From a virus, in IMG/VR virus record IMGVR_UViG_3300031227_011000, positions 1 to 24,147 of that record: DNA of 24,147 nucleotides. The stretch is one strand, 5' to 3'. The notes beneath the pieces are model-generated. The model made no database searches. It saw only the letters and a program-made list of their open reading frames with translations, and had not been told where the DNA came from. Made by a program: the position numbers and the translations under genes. Shown in pieces: positions 6,512 through 16,287 of the stretch; within the stretch, counting starts at the first letter, position 1, and the number at the start of each line of letters is the position of its first letter.

Positions 6512-7792
6512 TTAACCTATATAAACCGCGTTAGCATAACGTCTTACAACAATGAATCTTGTCGATGCGTTTATATAATCATCGTCTTTTACCACATGAA
6601 CAACCAAATCAGTGGTCAATGTTGGGTCTAAGTCGACATACGCAACCCATTCTGGACCCAAAGTAATCGGCGATTGTGGTGTTGCGCCAGCAAACGGAAT
6701 TGTATTGACATTTACTGTTCCTATAATTACATAATAAGCGTTTGCCGAAAACGTCAGTCGCGCTTCTTCAACTGTAACTATAGGGCCAGCACCAATATTT
6801 GTAACAACATACCGAGTAGTGACACCACCAGCAGTGTTGTCGTCTTCTAGTTCTATAACTTGACCAAGTGATAGGAGAGCGGCAGAGACAACTCCGAATG
6901 TCCCGATCAACGAACCATTAACATTAAAGGTTCCAATTGTGGCTCCAGTTTCAGGGTTCTTAACAATAGCATTTTGAGCAACCGTAAATGCGGTAATGTC
7001 AGGTGCGGCAGTAATTGTCCAGGCCCATACCCCCCCGTCTGTTAATCGGTATAATTGTGATGCTAATGACCCAGGAGGATCTTCCCACCAGTAAGCTGTT
7101 CCTTGGATTTTAGCAAATTTCGTCATTACAAAGTCTTTCCAATTCTTTGTAGTTTCTAATTGTCTGTCAGCCGAACTCCAATCCGTTTCATCTTCTACTA
7201 GAGTTGAAAGGGTATAGGTATAGGTCGGGTCGTCACCACGTTCCAAACGAAAAAATAAATCTCTGCGGTCTTTTATTGTAGTAATCGCTCCTAAGAGCGT
7301 GACAACTTCAGCCAAAGGAATCTTATCGGCATCTGAGCTCCACCCAGTTTGCGTCACATATAAACTGACTTCTAAAAATTCTGCGGTATTGACGTCTTGA
7401 ATGAATTCCCCACCCTCATTATTGTTTAATGTGGGATCCCAAAAGGCCCGACTTGTTTCAGAACCAGTTCCCCTGCTCAATTCTATATGGACGTAATTGG
7501 TAGTATTGTTGTCCATTTTCTTTTCTAATTGATCTTCAGCGGCATCTCCAACATAAAATGATTTTATTGCCCCAGAAGAATTGAATAGCGTGCTTCCTGC
7601 TATTGCGACTTTGATATCCAAGCCACCCTTTACCTCTGTTAAAAACCCAGAAACAATAAAACTCGTTGCCGTATAATAATTTGTATTATAAAGCTGGAGG
7701 TCTTCCTCCATAAAGTCTTGAAGATTCTCTACATCGGGAATAACAAATCTTTCTTGGGCATAAAATTTTATTTTTTGCATCATTGCGCACAT
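6512..7792 (-). CDS. Fibre-like tail structural protein, 426 aa
   Basis: The N-terminal segment (RFVIPDVENLQDFMEEDL, 15-32) looks like an attachment region, followed by a beta-rich body with GGLDIKVAIAGSTLF. Residues about 262-340 carry a copy of the module also found in the 565-aa and J proteins: DITAFTVAQNAIVKN, then LGQVIELEDDNTAGG. The C-terminus (EWVAYVDLDPTLTTDLVVHVV...VVRRYANAVYIG) looks like a terminal beta-domain. It lies between the NHL-propeller protein and the tail collar protein, so it is probably a fibre or fibre adaptor. I do not recognise an exact family. The first ATG has GGAGGT about 9 bases upstream and is preferred over later Met4 and Met5. Confidence 0.75.
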   Translation of the reverse strand: MCAMMQKIKFYAQERFVIPDVENLQDFMEEDLQLYNTNYYTATSFIVSGFLTEVKGGLDIKVAIAGSTLFNSSGAIKSFYVGDAAEDQLEKKMDNNTTNYVHIELSRGTGSETSRAFWDPTLNNNEGGEFIQDVNTAEFLEVSLYVTQTGWSSDADKIPLAEVVTLLGAITTIKDRRDLFFRLERGDDPTYTYTLSTLVEDETDWSSADRQLETTKNWKDFVMTKFAKIQGTAYWWEDPPGSLASQLYRLTDGGVWAWTITAAPDITAFTVAQNAIVKNPETGATIGTFNVNGSLIGTFGVVSAALLSLGQVIELEDDNTAGGVTTRYVVTNIGAGPIVTVEEARLTFSANAYYVIIGTVNVNTIPFAGATPQSPITLGPEWVAYVDLDPTLTTDLVVHVVKDDDYINASTRFIVVRRYANAVYIG

Positions 7793-7821: not shown

Positions 7822-7849
7822 ATTATATAATTTATTACAAATTTGTTAA
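7822..7849 (-). promoter_or_regulatory. Candidate internal promoter for the fibre genes
   Basis: On the minus strand TTAACA (7844-7849, five of six matches to TTGACA) is followed after 16 bases by a perfect TATAAT (7822-7827). It overlaps the stop codon of the NHL-propeller gene and lies about 30 bases upstream of the 426-aa gene. It also overlaps a 10-bp palindrome ACAAATTTGT (7837-7846). It would allow separate transcription of the fibre and lysis end of the operon. The DNA is locally AT-rich, so chance remains possible. Confidence 0.45.
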
Positions 7850-9994
7850 ATAATCATATTTATATTCAGTAGCATCAATCTCAAACCTTAACTTAATACC
7901 TGCGGCTTTAATCAAATTAACCAACATTGTCACAAGTTCCTCGGCCACATTGGGGTTGATCAAATAAACGGGGTAATCGCTCCCGTCCGTGCTAGGGACG
8001 AAATTCCCCTTTTCAATTAGGTTAATTGTGGAGCCAGAAGCATGACCAGATAAAAACCTGTAAGCAGGGTTCATAGTCAAAGTTGTAGAGTTGGGGACCC
8101 CTAAATAAGGAATAAGCAATTCCTCGCCTTCTTTGCCGAAATTAATAGCCAAATACCCACCATCATCAGAAAAATTACTAGAATCACCAACCTGTAAGGT
8201 CATATAAGTTACATCTTTAGCAATTACTTGGTCTAGTTCCGCAATTTTGCTAGTTAAAGCAAATCCTGTTAAACTTAATCTCGTGTCAAATAAAAACGAA
8301 CCAGGCCAATCGGGATCAATAACGGCACTAAATGCCGTTAAAGTCGGAGTTGCGGCTATCGCATTAACCCCTATATCCCCAACTTCTATTACAAAATTAG
8401 AATGTTCGGTTAGGTTTAAATTTAAAACCCTGACTCTTTCATTTATCCCGTCCATCCAATCGGAACAAAGAATTTTTCTCCCACTTTCATCATACCCAAT
8501 AGAAGAGCAATCATCAATGGCCACCTCATCGACATAAGCCAAAATAGGGGTTGCCCTTTTCACAATTCTACTGTTGTCATAATCTGAAACATAAAAATAA
8601 CCGAAATCATCAACCGCAACGTCTACTGGATTAAAAAATTGGTCATTCCCTGCCCCTAAAGAACCAATTTTGCTGACATAACTTAAGTCGGTTTTAAGCC
8701 TTTTCATCATTCTCTGGTTTTTTGTATCACAAATATACAAATGAGTGCTGTCGCAATCAATTCCTGTGGGCATAAATAATTGATTGTTCCCCGCTCCCAA
8801 ACCACCGTAACTGGCATTTAAGGCCATAGTGTTTTTTAAAACTTTAAAAACTTCATGACGACCAGCGTCTGTAATATATAAAAAATTATTATCGCAACAA
8901 ATCCCAGTAACCATTAATAAAGGGGAACCGCCATAATTTGACCCGTGATCCACATAAGATAGGTTCTTTATATCCCTTTTCATTACCCTTTGATTGTTAT
9001 TGTCACAAATATAAACATAATCGGCATCATAACAAACACCGCCAGGGAAATCTAATTCGTCTAACCCCGCACCAAAAGGACCGCCAAAACTATTTGTTTC
9101 TAGATTGCTACCTAAATTGAATTGTTTAAGGTAGTTGTTCCCGCCCGTGTAATCCACGGAAGTTAATAAGAAATCGTAAGCCCCTTCTTTAAAATGATGA
9201 CTGCCCTTTAAGGTGTCTAATAAAATTGGGATATCTTCGGGAATTCTAAAAACAATTTCTTTATTATTTATTTCGTAGGCCCCAACCCTAATAAATTCTT
9301 CGACCAAGGTGGAAAAAATAAATCCATCGGGAGCCGTGTTGGCCGTACCACCTGTGATCTGAATAGAGCCAGACGTCCCTATTGTATTTGTATAAATCCT
9401 TACATAGTTAGAAGCCGTTTCGTAGTTATAATAGGAAATTGCTGTTACGGTTTCTGTGGTTCCGTTTATTACAGCGATCACCTCATCAACTGTGGCCTGT
9501 GCTGGAGTCTCAAAATCAGAATCTTTAAACGTAATAGTGACGTCGATATCGCCATCAACCTTTAAGATTAAGAATTTCCCACCTGATAAGTCATAGGGCT
9601 CGTCATTATTAGCAGTTATTGTGGACCGACTATAAGTGGGACCCCAAAATAAATCTAAAGCAGAAATAATAGTGTATTTCAATTGCTTGGGATAAAAACT
9701 CATTATGGGGATTAGTTTCCGAAATGAACTATCTGCCATACCAGGCAATAGTTCCTTTGTCCCGTCTGCTAAAGTAACAAAAGACGGTTTATTAACGCCA
9801 ACATTTTTACCTAAATCATTTAAATAATTCCCATCGGCCAACTCTATAAATAATTGGTCGTGAACCTCATCAACTTGTACTTGAATTTCTTCTAGCCCAT
9901 TGGCCCACATACCAATCAAAGCCTTTATGAAGGGATTAATGTTGGGTTTAAAAATAGCAGGTAAGGTTTTTTGCAGTCTTGTTAGTTTGCTCAT
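7835..9994 (-). CDS. Baseplate/tail protein with inserted NHL beta-propeller, 719 aa
   Basis: Residues 1-115 resemble the tail protein that follows baseplate J in myoviruses (tail protein I/gp48-like): FIKALIGMWANGLEEIQ, then LFIELADGNYLNDLGKNVGV and DSSFRKLIPIM. Residues 126-230 are a beta module opening NDEPYDLSGGKFLILKVDG and closing SIQITGGTANTAPDGF, shared with the J protein. Residues about 300-527 contain four clear NHL repeats and a weaker fifth, each with a GI/GV.CD...YICD...QR.MKR pattern (316-340, 362-385, 408-432, 455-480, then 500-527). The C-terminal 80 residues (PVYLINPNVAEELVTMLVNLIKAAGIKL) return to the tail-protein fold. The NHL block is thus an insertion, perhaps for adhesion. 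Start ATG is two bases after the J stop; the preceding RBS lies within the J coding end. Confidence 0.85.
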   Translation of the reverse strand: MSKLTRLQKTLPAIFKPNINPFIKALIGMWANGLEEIQVQVDEVHDQLFIELADGNYLNDLGKNVGVNKPSFVTLADGTKELLPGMADSSFRKLIPIMSFYPKQLKYTIISALDLFWGPTYSRSTITANNDEPYDLSGGKFLILKVDGDIDVTITFKDSDFETPAQATVDEVIAVINGTTETVTAISYYNYETASNYVRIYTNTIGTSGSIQITGGTANTAPDGFIFSTLVEEFIRVGAYEINNKEIVFRIPEDIPILLDTLKGSHHFKEGAYDFLLTSVDYTGGNNYLKQFNLGSNLETNSFGGPFGAGLDELDFPGGVCYDADYVYICDNNNQRVMKRDIKNLSYVDHGSNYGGSPLLMVTGICCDNNFLYITDAGRHEVFKVLKNTMALNASYGGLGAGNNQLFMPTGIDCDSTHLYICDTKNQRMMKRLKTDLSYVSKIGSLGAGNDQFFNPVDVAVDDFGYFYVSDYDNSRIVKRATPILAYVDEVAIDDCSSIGYDESGRKILCSDWMDGINERVRVLNLNLTEHSNFVIEVGDIGVNAIAATPTLTAFSAVIDPDWPGSFLFDTRLSLTGFALTSKIAELDQVIAKDVTYMTLQVGDSSNFSDDGGYLAINFGKEGEELLIPYLGVPNSTTLTMNPAYRFLSGHASGSTINLIEKGNFVPSTDGSDYPVYLINPNVAEELVTMLVNLIKAAGIKLRFEIDATEYKYDYLTNL

Positions 9995-9995
9995 T

Positions 9996-12900
9996 TTATA
10001 TCAAAGTAATATCGGAAGATAAAATTCTTGCCAATTCGTTAGAAGAAATTATCACGTTAATTGCTGGCGAAATAATACTGACGTCGTAAACACCGCTGAC
10101 TTCTTTTACAGCGCATTCCACACCACTCAATAAAACGTCTTCCCCGACTTTCAAATTATTAACATACTGGATAATCGCGTTCTTTATGTTAGAGTCAATA
10201 CTTCCTATTGTTATATCGCCTTGAGTTGTTATATCAATTGAAAGCCTAATGGGCCTTACCACGGGGGAGGCAACCTCAATGGTAGCACCCACAGCCTTTA
10301 TTCCTGGGTAATTTAATGGGTCAGAATCTAAACCGTCTAATTTCCATTGGACTTCTCTTAAAAGGCCAATGTAATATTTGTATCCATCAACGCCAACAAC
10401 GGCATTGTTGTTAAAATTAAAAGCATGCCTATCTTTAAGGACAGCTCCATAATCAGTTGTATAGGTTTCTAAGGTCCCAACCGCCGCCAAAGAATCTTCG
10501 TCATAAATCGTTACAGTGTAAGGTTCTGCCCCGGTTCCTAAATCTGCCGCAATATTTTGTATGTAGCCTTTGTCATATACAGAACTGACTTTGGCATTTT
10601 GCGCTACTGTAAAATCGCGAATGTCGTAAGCCGCTCCCGTAGTTCTGTCATATACATCAATCGTAAACGGAGAATAATAACACACGGCTACTTGAGCCAG
10701 GGTATAAGCACTTAAATCAAAAGGCTCTAAAGTTCTTCCGTCATAAATTACGACCGTGTAAGGGGCTCCCGCCTGCGTATAAGAATAAATATATCCGTCT
10801 GTATACGCATTAGTGTTGTTATCGTTTATAACAACATAATCGCCAACTGTTAAGCCAGCACCCAAAGGGCCAGGGTCATTGCCTGTAACGAAACTTCCAT
10901 CTGATTGCCCATCAGCCCCAAGAGTCAAAAACCCAGCGGCAGTTATGTCGTTTACATAGCCGTTTAAGTATGTAATTGAATCGTCGTCCTTGAGTACAAT
11001 CCCTTCGCCAACTTGTAGATATCTAGCAAAGCCACAAGTAAAAGTCCCACCAATTAATCCGTCTGTTACGAATGAATAGGTGTAGGTGTTAAGGGCATTG
11101 TCTATTTTAATTCTTAGGCCACCGCAATATGTATAAAGAGTCCTTGCTTCTGGATGACTCCCGCCAACTCCATGACAAGTGCTATCGGCATCATGTGCGT
11201 TGTATTTTGTTTTAATATCATTCAGTCTTATTACGCACTCATGTAGGGTAGTAGGCGCAACCGCACTTGCTAAAGAATGATCCGCTGTTTCTTGTGCGGC
11301 ATGGTAAGCCCAACCAATTCCCAATTCAGCGTCAGCGTCATGAGCATCATAACTAGTCAACATCTCTGTTACTAAAACTATTAAACTCGGTAAAGCAACA
11401 GCGGCAGGGGAAGCCAATGGGAAATTGACATTGTCTATTGCGGTAGTATGTTGCGCGGCATCTGCGGCATGAGCGTTTGTCTGCGTTCTCAAATCTTCTG
11501 CAATAGCAATGGCAGAAGGCAAAGCATCTCCTACTCCATAAAATAAACCGTCAGGACTATTAATTTCAAAATCCCCACCACTGGTTCCGTCAGAGACAAA
11601 AGGAGTTAAAATATTATTAGCAGAACCACCTGGAATTTGTATGCCCCCAGCAGAACCCGCAGTCGTAGTCGCAATTTGAGGCTTTACTCCTTCTTTTATT
11701 AAGCGAACATCCGTATAAATAGAGAATGGAGTAATCAACGTATTGTTTAAAAAATAAACAATGTTGTCGGCTGTCACTGGACTTATATCAAAGACGTCTC
11801 CACTGACAGGGGCGGCTGGTAAATCGTCAGCTAAAACAAAACCGCCAGAAGCCCCAACATAATCCGAAACAAACCGAGCATACCCTCTCAACGCGGGCGT
11901 GGTCGTGGCATTTTGGAATCTGATATAATACCCATTAAAAAAATCATTATCATTTGAATAGCTGTCTCTGACATTCGTAGAGTCAAACGTGGCCAATCCA
12001 CCAGCATTGGTCACTGTTCCTTCTAAACTGAAAATTAGATTTAAAACTCTGTCTGATGCGTCGCCATCTAAAATCACAACTAAATTTTGATCTGGGCCCA
12101 AAACATAATCTTCTTCATTATCAGGTTCAATGTATGCTGAATTAGGCTCCTCACTAGTCGAAAGAGTGTTGTAGGCAAAATCTAAAGTTATTGCTGTCGT
12201 CAGGGTCCCATCAACTTCTATTGTTCCCGAGCCATCTAAAGTGTTAGTCGCTATTCTTAAATAAGTATCTGTGCCGCGCTCTATCGTATAAGCATGAACG
12301 CCAATTAAAGATTTATCATCATTTATTAAATCGGCAATTTGTTCTGCTGTATAGGAAGCTATAGCGAATGTGATAACTTGTGCGACCGCCTCTCCATCAA
12401 TATAAAACGCCAAATCAGTAACACCTACTGTAATCGGATAATTTTGAGGGCTAACGCATTCTAAAAATGCTTCAGTATTAACAGTCCCTGCGGTCACCAC
12501 GTCGTCCTCAATTAAAGAATCAGTCAATTCGATTTGACCATTATTCCTATTAAGAACGTAATCAACATCGGCACCTTGGACTTGAGCAGTGGGAAACCCC
12601 AAAATAGTATTTGCCACTCCTCCTGTTATTTCGATATAAGAGTCTGCCTCATTTGCTGTTCTGGAATATACCCTAACCTTACTGTCGTCTAAAATAGAAA
12701 TTGCATACCCACCAGGCAATTCCGCATTTATTGCGGCCGCAACTTCATCAGTTGTGGCAACAGTAGGATCAAGAAAGCTCGCTGGAGCAAATGTTATCGA
12801 CAAAGGATTCGTTGTTTTATTGTCTATTTCCAACGTAAGTGCTGGCGCACCAGATAAATCGTAAGGAGCGGTATTGGCTGTGTCAACGAAAGCAGTGAGG

Positions 12901-14372
12901 CCGTCCTTATTCAATAAAACGTCATTTTTATACAAATTCAAAGTGTAAGCATACTTATCTTCATCAAAATTCAACACGTCGTTTGCGTCAACACCCGTAC
13001 CAGGGGTCACAATTTTAATTTTTTCATTCGTATTGGCCAAAGCACTTATAATAATTTTATTGTTGCTACTGGCTGTTCTGGCTTCTATTAAAGACATTCT
13101 ATCGTTTATTGCTACCGCAACTTCCCTAGCAGTGCCAACCCCAACGGTTGTAAAGTCTGTGGAGCCAAAAATAATCGTTTCTTCAACATCATTGACAGCA
13201 ACAATTAATTTATCCCCCGAATTAATCGCATAAGGTTGGGAGTTATTGGTAAGCAAAGAGGCTTTGACGATAGGATAGTTATCTAATTGTAAAAACTTTT
13301 CTGTACCCGCCGCTGTTCTGATGACGTATTCGGTCGCCTTGCCACTAAAGGTCGGTTCAAACCCAACACCATCATCAATATAAACCCTAGTCGGGCTAGA
13401 AAGAGAAACGGGCTCAATCAAATTAGAAGAAACAACACGCTTCGTTTCTTCACTATTTGTGATTCCACTCAATAAAGTAATAATAGACAGGGCGGTTCCC
13501 TTAGACAGGCTTTGAATAGTATTCCGAATTCTATCTTGAAGCTCAGAGTCGGTTTCAATATCAGTGCCATTTGTAAACGATTCTGGATTTTCTACAATTG
13601 CCCCGACAAACGGTGTTGTCTCAAAGGTGTCAATAGACCCCAACGGGATGTTCCCGTCTATCCCCGCTATATTCGCCGTGACTAGAATGTTTTCAGTTTC
13701 ATCTTCCCCGTCTGCCAATGTGGCTGTTTCGTTTAAAATGAAATCAATTCTATCTGAAATATTGGTTTGGGGAACGTAAACAACCGAACCTGAATTAATA
13801 CTCCTTAAGCCCCTTTGGCTATAAATAATCGATTCCCCAATCTTATGACTGCCGGTAATGGTGGCATTTAACATAACAGTATAATAAGTCGTGTGACTCA
13901 CTATGTCGGTGTACTCAATTGTCTGTTCCGTTCCTGCTGAACGGCCAACAATTATTTTAGGCCACCCGCCTATTGGCATAACCCCACCCGGATCAAGAAA
14001 CCCAGTAGAGTCGTCAATGTCTAACGTAGCCTGACCCGCGACAGCACCGCCCGTACCAGCAAAAACATTAGTAGAAACCTTGGTGAAACTTTCATCACTG
14101 ATTGTAATGTAACCGCTGGATTTTTTGGCTTCGTTTCTTTCTAAACCATATTCTAAAGCCCTATTGTCTAGATCTTCACCCGTGGTCGTTTCTAAGTTGT
14201 AACTTTGTATTACATTTACCAACTGAATGTATTGTTGATAAATTTCCTGAGAAACCGCCTCGATCATAGTCAAAATTGTAGAGCCAGCGTTTACATCGTT
14301 TAATGGACTGTTTGCGGTTATATAAGCGACCTGACTAGCAACAATTTTTTGAAAACTTTTAAATTCAAACAT
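9996..14372 (-). CDS. Giant baseplate J-like protein with internal module array, 1458 aa
   Basis: This forms the baseplate wedge that surrounds the hub. Residues 1-320 match the baseplate J family: SPLNDVNAGSTILTMIEAV, then the DLDNRALEYGLERNEAKKS segment, GSVVYVP, the ILVTANIAGIDGNIPLGSI region and DIETDSELQDRIRN. The family C-terminus is at 1356-1458 (GIKAVGATIEVASP, the IKNAIIQYVNNLKVGEDVLLS region). Between them is a long insertion: YDLSGG-type beta modules at about 378-470, 500-594, 642-735 and an interrupted copy at 754-925; three AHDAD-type segments at 965-1075; and YTVxIYDxxT/FTVAQNA modules at about 1105-1315. Typical J proteins are a few hundred residues, so most of this length is additional, probably surface-exposed material. 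It follows the gp25 fusion as in most myoviruses. Confidence 0.92.
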   Translation of the reverse strand: MFEFKSFQKIVASQVAYITANSPLNDVNAGSTILTMIEAVSQEIYQQYIQLVNVIQSYNLETTTGEDLDNRALEYGLERNEAKKSSGYITISDESFTKVSTNVFAGTGGAVAGQATLDIDDSTGFLDPGGVMPIGGWPKIIVGRSAGTEQTIEYTDIVSHTTYYTVMLNATITGSHKIGESIIYSQRGLRSINSGSVVYVPQTNISDRIDFILNETATLADGEDETENILVTANIAGIDGNIPLGSIDTFETTPFVGAIVENPESFTNGTDIETDSELQDRIRNTIQSLSKGTALSIITLLSGITNSEETKRVVSSNLIEPVSLSSPTRVYIDDGVGFEPTFSGKATEYVIRTAAGTEKFLQLDNYPIVKASLLTNNSQPYAINSGDKLIVAVNDVEETIIFGSTDFTTVGVGTAREVAVAINDRMSLIEARTASSNNKIIISALANTNEKIKIVTPGTGVDANDVLNFDEDKYAYTLNLYKNDVLLNKDGLTAFVDTANTAPYDLSGAPALTLEIDNKTTNPLSITFAPASFLDPTVATTDEVAAAINAELPGGYAISILDDSKVRVYSRTANEADSYIEITGGVANTILGFPTAQVQGADVDYVLNRNNGQIELTDSLIEDDVVTAGTVNTEAFLECVSPQNYPITVGVTDLAFYIDGEAVAQVITFAIASYTAEQIADLINDDKSLIGVHAYTIERGTDTYLRIATNTLDGSGTIEVDGTLTTAITLDFAYNTLSTSEEPNSAYIEPDNEEDYVLGPDQNLVVILDGDASDRVLNLIFSLEGTVTNAGGLATFDSTNVRDSYSNDNDFFNGYYIRFQNATTTPALRGYARFVSDYVGASGGFVLADDLPAAPVSGDVFDISPVTADNIVYFLNNTLITPFSIYTDVRLIKEGVKPQIATTTAGSAGGIQIPGGSANNILTPFVSDGTSGGDFEINSPDGLFYGVGDALPSAIAIAEDLRTQTNAHAADAAQHTTAIDNVNFPLASPAAVALPSLIVLVTEMLTSYDAHDADAELGIGWAYHAAQETADHSLASAVAPTTLHECVIRLNDIKTKYNAHDADSTCHGVGGSHPEARTLYTYCGGLRIKIDNALNTYTYSFVTDGLIGGTFTCGFARYLQVGEGIVLKDDDSITYLNGYVNDITAAGFLTLGADGQSDGSFVTGNDPGPLGAGLTVGDYVVINDNNTNAYTDGYIYSYTQAGAPYTVVIYDGRTLEPFDLSAYTLAQVAVCYYSPFTIDVYDRTTGAAYDIRDFTVAQNAKVSSVYDKGYIQNIAADLGTGAEPYTVTIYDEDSLAAVGTLETYTTDYGAVLKDRHAFNFNNNAVVGVDGYKYYIGLLREVQWKLDGLDSDPLNYPGIKAVGATIEVASPVVRPIRLSIDITTQGDITIGSIDSNIKNAIIQYVNNLKVGEDVLLSGVECAVKEVSGVYDVSIISPAINVIISSNELARILSSDITLI
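11148..11486 (-). repeat. Three copies of an AHDAD-type segment in the J protein
   Basis: The segment occurs at J residues 965-975 (TNAHAADAAQH), 1007-1014 (SYDAHDAD) and 1056-1067 (KYNAHDADSTCH), each preceded by a helical stretch such as IVLVTEMLTS or VIRLNDIKTK and followed by further histidines. The spacing is about 42-50 residues. The pattern is repeated at protein level only; the DNA copies have diverged, so duplication is old. Regular His and Asp placement could bind metal. Confidence 0.7.
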
Positions 14373-14385
14373 TTCTAACTACTCC

Positions 14386-16287
14386 TTAAAATGTCAATAC
14401 GAGTGGAACTGATTCTTTGGCCTTATTGGCTACAACTGTCATATCCAGTCTGACTAAATTGTCTTGTCTTTTTAAGCTAACATTTGGAACCTTAAAGATT
14501 CTGACATCAGATTCTAAAGTTTCCCTAATAGATTGAATCATTTCATCAATCATCAATAAGTTTTTTTCTCCAACCTTGATATTAACGCCCTTATTGGGGT
14601 GATAATATAAAGAGCCTCTCTCGTAACCAATTTGTAATAGGGTGGCCTGCTTTAAATTGTCATACCCAGCCACCAACTCGACGTCTCCCCTATTATTCAA
14701 AACAATATCGGCGTTGCTATTCAACAGCAAATCAACAGACATAAATTTTTCTTGGTCACTCAATCTTTTTGTGACAGAGGTCTCTCGCCCTTTGAATAGA
14801 ATGCTATCTCCTAAATTTGAAGACTGAACAGAGGGGATAAGTATTTGGTCGCCTGGGTTTAAAACCCCTTCTTGATCTAGGGTGTCGTCTATATAGGGGG
14901 GCCTTAATTTATTCAAACTGGCAATTTCTATCCAACGAGTTGGATCTCTTAAAAACCTCATGGCTATTCGCTCTAAGATATCCCCAGAATTCACAATTGT
15001 TTTAAACGCAGAATTAGGGGTCGGCAATTCTATTTCGTTATTGAATGCCGCCAAAACATTCTTTTTACTCGCTACTTGCTTGTCCAATAAATCTTTTTCA
15101 CTAATAATAGAATCGGCGTCCACCAGATCATTGTTCAAAATAACCTGAACGACGTCTCCAAAATATTTATCCGAAGAGAGCATATCGTTCATTGCACTTT
15201 CGCAATCACTAAAGGCTTTTAAAATTTGCCTTTGCTTTGGTGTCAAAACTGTTGAAGTCACTCCACTTTCTAATGTAGAACCTCTGCCGTAAATAGCGTC
15301 ATAAGCGGTACTTCCCTGCCCGATAAAATCACAAAAGTTGTCCCTGATCCTATTTACTTGATACTTCAAATCCCCATAGAATTTTCTAGGCAACGAAGAA
15401 ACTTTATTCTTACCCGACTGTAAGGATTGGATCATTTTGTTGGCTTGTCTCAGCGGCTTCAATAAAACGCTATCCACTGCTTGTTCTATTTGCTCCAATG
15501 TACTTATTGCGCTATCTAAAATATTAATCGCCGCATCAATAGTGTCTTCAATTTGATCTATGGTATTAAAAATCTTTTCATACCATTCCAATTCCATTTC
15601 AGCCTTAGTAAGTTCGTGCTTACCTACAATTTTTAAAATAATATTGTAATTGTAGGTGAATGGAGAGTCTTTGCTTCTGTTTGTATCAAACTTAACGGGC
15701 TCAACTAACCAGAACTCATTGTCTTTAAAGTTTTGGAAAATTAACCGAGCGTTGGCCCCATCGGCCAAGGTTTTCATTTCCGCGTATTCACGAATAAAAT
15801 TCCTGAACTCCATTAATTCTTGATAGCCTGATTTACCACCGCCCAATCTCGCAACGCCAGAATCAGTTACGCCCTGCGTCCCTCTACTGGGAAAAATCCC
15901 TGTTGTCCCAGAAATAACCAAATCTTTGAAAACAAACCCTTCGTTCTCGGTCACAACACCAGCTTGCGTAGGGATAATTCTTATGGAAAACGGTTCGCTT
16001 TGTTTAATTTCTTGCGGGTTTAATTGGAGCCTATATTCGAGATCTACTGGTTTTATATCTGGCTCTTTATCATCACTAGGGGCACTGTTGCTGGTAGCCC
16101 CACCAATAATTTTAAAGACGTACCCAGGGTTTTTATTCCAATTCCTTGGTTTCACCTCTTGCAAAGCATGAGAAACCAGCGTATTCATTCCAGATCCACT
16201 TTTATTCCAAATAGAACTGAAATTATCCCCGATGTTTTTCCAGTCACCTATCGACGTCTTTAATTGATTGAATCCTTGTAATGCCAT
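14386..16287 (-). CDS. Baseplate protein: LysM domain fused to gp25-like wedge domain, 633 aa
   Basis: Three parts are visible. Residues 1-225 are an N-terminal baseplate domain (DLEYRLQLNPQEIKQSEPF, ending in an EFWLVEPVKF beta region). Residues about 228-295 are helical and probably coiled coil. Residues 430-487 are a LysM domain (SGDILERIAMRFLRDPTRW, LNPGDQILIPS), known from tail-tube-tip proteins. Residues about 510-633 match the gp25/GPW family (FMSVDLLLNSNADIVLNN, GDVELVAGYDNLKQATLLQI, YHPNKGVNIKVG), which starts sheath assembly at the baseplate. Separate genes usually encode the LysM protein and gp25; here they are one polypeptide. It lies directly upstream of baseplate J in transcription order, as gp25 usually does. 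The ATG is inside the short gap after the 565-aa gene. Confidence 0.85.
   Translation of the reverse strand: MALQGFNQLKTSIGDWKNIGDNFSSIWNKSGSGMNTLVSHALQEVKPRNWNKNPGYVFKIIGGATSNSAPSDDKEPDIKPVDLEYRLQLNPQEIKQSEPFSIRIIPTQAGVVTENEGFVFKDLVISGTTGIFPSRGTQGVTDSGVARLGGGKSGYQELMEFRNFIREYAEMKTLADGANARLIFQNFKDNEFWLVEPVKFDTNRSKDSPFTYNYNIILKIVGKHELTKAEMELEWYEKIFNTIDQIEDTIDAAINILDSAISTLEQIEQAVDSVLLKPLRQANKMIQSLQSGKNKVSSLPRKFYGDLKYQVNRIRDNFCDFIGQGSTAYDAIYGRGSTLESGVTSTVLTPKQRQILKAFSDCESAMNDMLSSDKYFGDVVQVILNNDLVDADSIISEKDLLDKQVASKKNVLAAFNNEIELPTPNSAFKTIVNSGDILERIAMRFLRDPTRWIEIASLNKLRPPYIDDTLDQEGVLNPGDQILIPSVQSSNLGDSILFKGRETSVTKRLSDQEKFMSVDLLLNSNADIVLNNRGDVELVAGYDNLKQATLLQIGYERGSLYYHPNKGVNIKVGEKNLLMIDEMIQSIRETLESDVRIFKVPNVSLKRQDNLVRLDMTVVANKAKESVPLVLTF

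What the first reader, a model, noticed from the sequence alone, without database searches (positions are those of the whole stretch)
8414..9097. NHL beta-propeller inserted into a baseplate protein
Four clear NHL repeats and a weaker fifth lie between tail-protein-I-like ends. NHL propellers are usually found in signalling, enzyme or ligand-binding proteins. Placed on the baseplate, one could bind host surface polysaccharide or protein. A propeller with five or six blades on a trimeric or hexameric baseplate would be an unusual adhesion device.
Basis: partly seen in the sequence, partly recalled or inferred. Interest (0 to 1): 0.65.

Follow-up and report, generated by a model that had tools for sequence, protein, structure and literature searches.

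The report
Six-bladed propeller in phage baseplate protein
A phage that probably has a contractile tail carries a complete six-bladed, wheel-shaped NHL domain inside the baseplate protein that probably links the tail's wedge to its fibres; most relatives have nothing or a different domain at that spot, so the domain looks like a once-acquired, exposed binding or docking part whose partner is unknown.

Summary
The gene is 7835-9994 on the minus strand (719 aa). Residues 275-548 (DNA 8351-9172, a little wider than stated) are NHL repeats: Pfam NHL E 5e-14, and a confident AlphaFold model (pLDDT 80, pTM 0.82) has 24 strands in six blades, closed by a 3+1 velcro. The best solved match is the NHL domain of Thin, Z 33.5. 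There are six blades, not 'four and a weaker fifth'. The carrier resembles the Tri1/gp7-type wedge subunit by synteny and an N-terminal baseplate profile, not by Pfam. Among 42 homologues the slot is a 19-residue linker in 17, a ~120-residue beta-domain stretch in 14, a smaller insert in 5 and the NHL propeller in 5 (one clade, 100/100); in Myxococcus phage Mx1 the same interval holds a kelch propeller. So the core exists without it and it was gained once here. Host binding is plausible but unproven: the propeller diverges faster than its flanks, but is not swapped within its clade, and a separate gp12-like fibre tip lies downstream. Propellers in phage host-recognition devices are already known (phi11 gp45, phiKZ gp131). 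New variant of a known kind.

The parts
7835..9994 (-). Baseplate wedge protein with propeller, Tri1/gp7-like (719 aa)
   Evidence: synteny with diffocin CD1370-CD1372 (PMC10996793)
9629..9994 (-). N-terminal wedge domain, residues 1-122
   Evidence: phrog_1160 baseplate protein E 1.4e-6; profile A5 to Phi92 gp146 E 5.6e-4
9341..9628 (-). D2, small beta domain (residues 123-218); sequence copies in the J-like protein of the window
   Evidence: tblastn E 3.6e-11 and 1.3e-6 within the window; blastp E 4e-13 and 8e-8 to J residues 500-589 and 370-431
9191..9340 (-). D3, conserved segment (residues 219-268) ending in the LKGSHH motif just before the slot; residues 227-268 are 74-83% identical between window and NHL orthologues
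8351..9172 (-). Six-bladed NHL propeller, residues 275-548
8348..9184 (-). Slot c (residues 271-549): the stretch not matched by the core profile of propeller-free homologues
7838..8347 (-). C-terminal core domain, residues 550-719; by analogy with Tri1 the fibre-linked end (inferred)
   Evidence: core HMM residues 550-713, i-E 1.6e-38
9996..14372 (-). Baseplate J-like (gp6/Tri2-like) protein, upstream neighbour
   Evidence: Pfam Baseplate_J E 5e-18
14386..16287 (-). Tube initiator + LysM + sheath initiator-like protein
   Evidence: Pfam Phage_tail_tube_init 1.5e-18, LysM 2.8e-6, Sheath_initiator 4.2e-6 (27.2 bits, below the 32.9 cut-off)
6512..7792 (-). Conserved protein downstream of the wedge protein, likely fibre attachment (inferred)
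   Evidence: 48-56% identical orthologues downstream of the wedge gene in L007, L009, L017, L018
5577..6497 (-). Collar/gp12-like fibre tip with HTHTGPNHSHAGG repeats (reading of the sequence; no convincing profile match)
   Evidence: sequence; replaced by a weakly beta-helix-like protein in L018

Best explanation
The protein is the third (Tri1/gp7-like) subunit of a contractile baseplate wedge, expected in six copies per virion (inferred by analogy). Its conserved core is about 435 residues. In one phage lineage a complete six-bladed NHL propeller was inserted once, in frame, at a tolerated slot between conserved segment D3 and the C-terminal domain, which by analogy leads to the fibre. The propeller would therefore project from the wedge-to-fibre arm and act as an accessory contact domain: six exposed propellers that bind a ligand, most likely a host-envelope glycan or protein, adding to the primary fibre-tip contact. 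Shown: fold, position, single gain in this lineage, a core that exists without it, faster divergence than flanks. Inferred: copy number, exposure, ligand binding.
For: The fold and its closure are supported. The core profile from propeller-free homologues flanks the propeller exactly. The slot is a 19-residue linker in 17 homologues, among them L027 from the same metagenome as the four other NHL members. NHL is one clade, 100/100. The propeller is 41-50% identical between window and orthologues, against 66-72% for the wedge domain and 57-64% for the C-terminal part. Myxococcus phage Mx1 has an unrelated kelch propeller between homologous ends. Similar NHL propellers occur in unrelated phage proteins: L090 at 35% identity over 244 residues, joined to a tail-protein-like C-terminal part, and L072. 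In diffocin the C-terminal part of Tri1 links to the tail fibre (PMC10996793). phi11 gp45 has a propeller with a modelled GlcNAc cavity (PMC4901313).
Against: Slot content is stable within clades (4 changes for 5 states, the minimum), unlike a typical host-range module. A separate fibre tip is encoded downstream, and it is the part replaced in L018. No conserved binding pocket was identified. The least conserved parts are the outer strand D and the AB loops, not one clear face. Sequence links of the N-terminal domain to solved wedge proteins are weak.
Confidence: 0.45

Rival explanations
1. Structural role: the propeller is a rigid spacer or docking pad that contacts the phage's own parts (neighbouring wedge, retracted fibres, the 6512-7792 protein), shaping the arm and transmitting the trigger from fibre to wedge. 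It does not touch the host.
For: Constant within the clade while the fibre gene changes; it lies before the C-terminal domain that by analogy leads to the fibre (PMC10996793); NHL domains commonly bind proteins (established knowledge).
Against: 17 homologues do without it, with a 19-residue linker; it diverges faster than the flanks.
Confidence: 0.38
2. Enzyme: the propeller hydrolyses or cleaves an envelope component, as lactonase-, lyase- or sialidase-type propellers do.
For: Propeller enzymes are known on phage tails (K1F endosialidase, named in PMC4901313); PAL 3fvz appears among the fold matches.
Against: Of the histidine columns only position 380 is near-conserved (H in 4 of 5), so no PAL-type His set is kept; the conserved residues are those of the NHL motif (D-x-x-N-x-R) and glycines. 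The closest folds are binding NHL domains.
Confidence: 0.07
3. Neutral ornament: an in-frame domain inserted once and carried along with no function of its own, since the slot tolerates any compact fold.
For: The slot holds several unrelated folds.
Against: The propeller stays intact, with motif residues invariant, in phages whose wedge domains are only 66-72% identical to the window's; the exception, L017, has a broken frame that could be a sequencing or assembly error.
Confidence: 0.1

Closest known systems
Myxococcus phage Mx1 'kelch repeat protein' (WNM70275.1, 982 aa)
   Same: Homologous N-terminal and C-terminal parts, same place after the J-like gene, propeller between them
   Different: Kelch, not NHL; segment D3 is not recognisable, so the match is to the same interval rather than to the residue
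Diffocin CD1372 (Tri1) / R-pyocin triplex subunit / T4 gp7-like wedge subunit
   Same: Gene order sheath initiator - J-like - this protein - fibre genes; N-terminal wedge domain
   Different: No propeller described there; sequence match weak (8v3w E 0.49)
phi11 gp45 (and phi80alpha) receptor-binding protein
   Same: Propeller in a baseplate protein, proposed sugar binding (PMC4901313)
   Different: Five blades, trimeric RBP at the baseplate edge, unrelated carrier, not a wedge subunit
phiKZ gp131C
   Same: Propeller on the baseplate periphery of a contractile phage (PMC4901313, PMC6115969)
   Different: Seven blades, separate protein, not NHL
NHL domains of Thin, TRIM2/3/71, Brat; PknD sensor
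   Same: Six-bladed NHL fold, Z up to 33.5
   Different: Cellular proteins binding RNA or protein; no phage link
'NHL protein' of Myoviridae sp. ctIty1 (A0A8S5THG8, 729 aa)
   Same: Similar length and an NHL-like propeller in a contractile-tailed phage record
   Different: Only seen as a fold match; its flanks were not compared

Membership tests
NHL-repeat six-bladed propeller (PF01436) | Repeats match the NHL profile above Pfam's cut-off | tested here: met
   51.9 bits against 20, E 5.1e-14
NHL-repeat six-bladed propeller (PF01436) | Six four-stranded blades with velcro closure | tested here: met
   24 strands, 3+5x4+1, pLDDT 80, pTM 0.82; Z 33.5 to 6xg7
Tri1/gp7-like wedge subunit of contractile baseplates | Gene directly after the J-like gene, in a sheath-initiator - J-like - wedge - fibre order | tested here: met
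   compare PMC10996793
Tri1/gp7-like wedge subunit of contractile baseplates | Sequence similarity of the N-terminal domain to known wedge proteins | tested here: inconclusive
   phrog_1160 baseplate protein E 1.4e-6; Phi92 gp146 E 5.6e-4; diffocin TRI-1 0.49, TmpF 0.15
Tri1/gp7-like wedge subunit of contractile baseplates | One copy per wedge triplex, linked to a fibre | not testable with these tools
   needs a virion structure
Pfam families of tail-protein-I/gp48-like baseplate proteins | Match above the curated cut-off | tested here: not met
   No such match for the window protein or its N-terminal domain; only weak Mu Gp48 (E 0.17, one of six members) and DUF2612 (E 0.079, L062)
phi11-type propeller receptor-binding protein | Five-bladed propeller within a trimeric RBP with coiled-coil stem | tested here: not met
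   six blades; the carrier is a wedge-like protein, not an RBP stem
Propeller enzymes (PAL, lactonase type) | Conserved metal-binding His set | tested here: not met
   only His380 near-conserved among orthologues

The most novel reading that the evidence does not exclude
The Tri1-like wedge protein of a broad group of phages has a general insertion slot for exposed domains, filled independently by different propellers (NHL here, kelch in Mx1), and in this lineage it builds a ring of six NHL propellers around the baseplate as a second host-contact device separate from the fibres.
Probability: 0.35. Interest if true: 0.55.

Novelty: new variant of a known kind. Interest (0 to 1): 0.4.

Why it matters
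It gives a natural series of one baseplate protein with the same slot empty, filled by a small domain, by an NHL propeller or, in the same interval, by a kelch propeller. That makes it directly testable whether such a slot adds host contact or only geometry. It also marks a place in a contractile baseplate protein that tolerates whole inserted domains.

Tried and rejected
Full-length AlphaFold with a five-row alignment failed (pLDDT 39) and was not used. The single-protein scan of viral contigs found nothing, so neighbours and profiles were used instead. Hit H2 (human gut record) lies in a bacterial sugar-uptake gene cluster, not in tail genes, and was dropped. L013 has only generic NHL repeats in a 3569-residue cellular protein; it served only as an alignment row for the model. 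A recent foreign origin by base composition was not supported: slot GC 38.1% against 35-41% for the flanks. A hypervariable cassette was rejected: slot state changes the minimum number of times on the tree. A single variable face was not found. tblastn with the L090 propeller found no match in the cultured phage records, though BLAST's low-complexity filter may hide repeats.

Full report
Observation. The finding lies on the minus strand, inside an ORF at 7835-9994 of 719 aa. Pfam NHL matches it at E 5.1e-14, far above the curated cut-off, and solved NHL domains are found by sequence alone (TRIM71 at 7e-20 with the single protein, 1e-26 with a three-sequence profile). This is not chance.

Structure. 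A full-length model with a thin alignment was useless (pLDDT 39). The domain alone (residues 259-576, 11 rows) gave pLDDT 80.4 and pTM 0.82, with most blocks between model residues 41 and 240 above 85. It has 24 strands: three strands at the start, five blades of four, and one last strand, so residues 275-281, 286-292 and 299-306 (B, C, D) and 541-548 (A) close the sixth blade. It is a six-bladed propeller with a 3+1 velcro. Foldseek and VIA-align 2 put NHL domains first (6xg7, Z 33.5, rmsd 1.9 over 249 residues). The propeller spans 8351-9172, slightly more than the 8414-9097 given.

Carrier protein. Neighbours are a J-like protein (Baseplate_J E 5e-18), a protein with tube-initiator, LysM and sheath-initiator matches (the last below Pfam's cut-off), and downstream a conserved protein and a collar-like fibre tip. 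This is the gene order of diffocin CD1370-CD1371-CD1372-fibre, where CD1372 is Tri1, one copy per wedge triplex, with a C-terminal part that connects to the fibre (PMC10996793). The N-terminal domain matches a PHROG of baseplate proteins (1.4e-6); its profile reaches Phi92 gp146 (5.6e-4) and only weakly TmpF and diffocin TRI-1. Pfam families for such proteins do not match. The assignment as a Tri1/gp7-like wedge subunit is therefore well supported by position and only moderately by sequence.

Homologues and the slot. Profile scans of IMG/VR gave about 40 homologues, many on contigs of 100-120 kb. A profile made only from the 16 short homologues (432-445 aa, no propeller) matches the window protein at residues 1-270 and 550-713, leaving exactly the propeller unmatched. 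In the 42 proteins (window and Mx1 included) slot c is: a 19-residue linker in 17 (one of them, L045, has an incomplete frame); a stretch of about 120 residues in 14, in which the copy read out (L012) partly matches the D2 part of the core profile; a smaller insert in 5; the NHL propeller in 5 (window, L007, L009, L017, L018). In Myxococcus phage Mx1 the interval between the homologous N- and C-terminal parts holds a kelch propeller (Kelch_1 E 1.7e-32). On a tree of the core without the slots, the five states need four changes, the minimum, and the NHL group is one clade with 100/100 support. So the propeller was gained once in this lineage and is kept; it is not a freely swapped cassette. All four NHL relatives come from one metagenome (3300035698), which also holds a propeller-free relative (L027).

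Rates. Against the window protein the propeller is 41-50% identical, the wedge domain 66-72%, D3 74-83%, and the C-terminal part 57-64%. Within the propeller the outer strand D and the AB loops vary most (0.39 mean identity), while the DA and BC loops (0.50) are about average. This fits an exposed domain but does not point to one binding face. No conserved histidine set is present, which speaks against a PAL-type enzyme.

Other phages. NHL propellers similar to this one occur in unrelated phage proteins: L090 (35% identity over 244 residues, joined to a tail-protein-like C-terminal part), L072, L094, L085, L073. Published phage examples of propellers in host recognition or on the baseplate are phi11 gp45 with a modelled GlcNAc cavity, PRD1 P2 and phiKZ gp131C (PMC4901313, PMC6115969), and kelch-domain proteins, one of them part of the virion, are reported for jumbo phage CBB (PMC5259590). 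I found no paper describing an NHL propeller in a baseplate, within the held library.

Mechanism. Most likely the propeller projects from the wedge-to-fibre arm and serves as an accessory ligand-binding domain in six copies. The nearest rival is a structural or docking role towards the phage's own fibres. The separate fibre tip gene, replaced in L018 while the propeller stays, argues that the fibre tip, not the propeller, sets host range. I give the contact role 0.45 and the structural role 0.38.

Verdict. Propellers in phage baseplate devices are known; the NHL type, the wedge-like carrier and the natural series of empty and filled slots are the new parts.

Noticed in passing
11154-11510 (residues 955-1073 of the J-like protein) and L018 5995-8550 (residues 222-343 of the protein): A His/Asp-rich module of about 120 residues (..AHAADAAQHTTA..YDAHDADA..) is shared at 56% identity between the J-like protein of the window and slot b of the Tri1-like protein of L018: one module present in two different baseplate genes of related phages.
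   Followed up: partly
9996-14372: The J-like protein (1458 aa) holds several divergent copies of the small D2 beta domain; in relative L023 a stretch of the wedge protein matches the flagellin hook IN motif weakly (E 0.0014, below the cut-off).
   Followed up: partly
1145-2809 and 2836-2909: A cpn60 chaperonin (Pfam E 1.6e-51) and a tRNA-Trp gene lie side by side in the same phage contig.
   Followed up: no
L017 4447-6614: The Tri1-like gene of L017 is split into two overlapping frames (539 and 207 aa) within the propeller part: a frameshift or an assembly error.
   Followed up: no
L018 9887-11067: In L018 the fibre-tip gene is replaced by a weakly beta-helix-like protein (E 1.7e-5, just under the cut-off), while wedge protein and propeller are kept.
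   Followed up: partly
L090 1274-3610: A 778-residue phage protein with an N-terminal NHL propeller of near-identical repeats joined to a tail-protein-like C-terminal part, unrelated to the Tri1-like core.
   Followed up: partly
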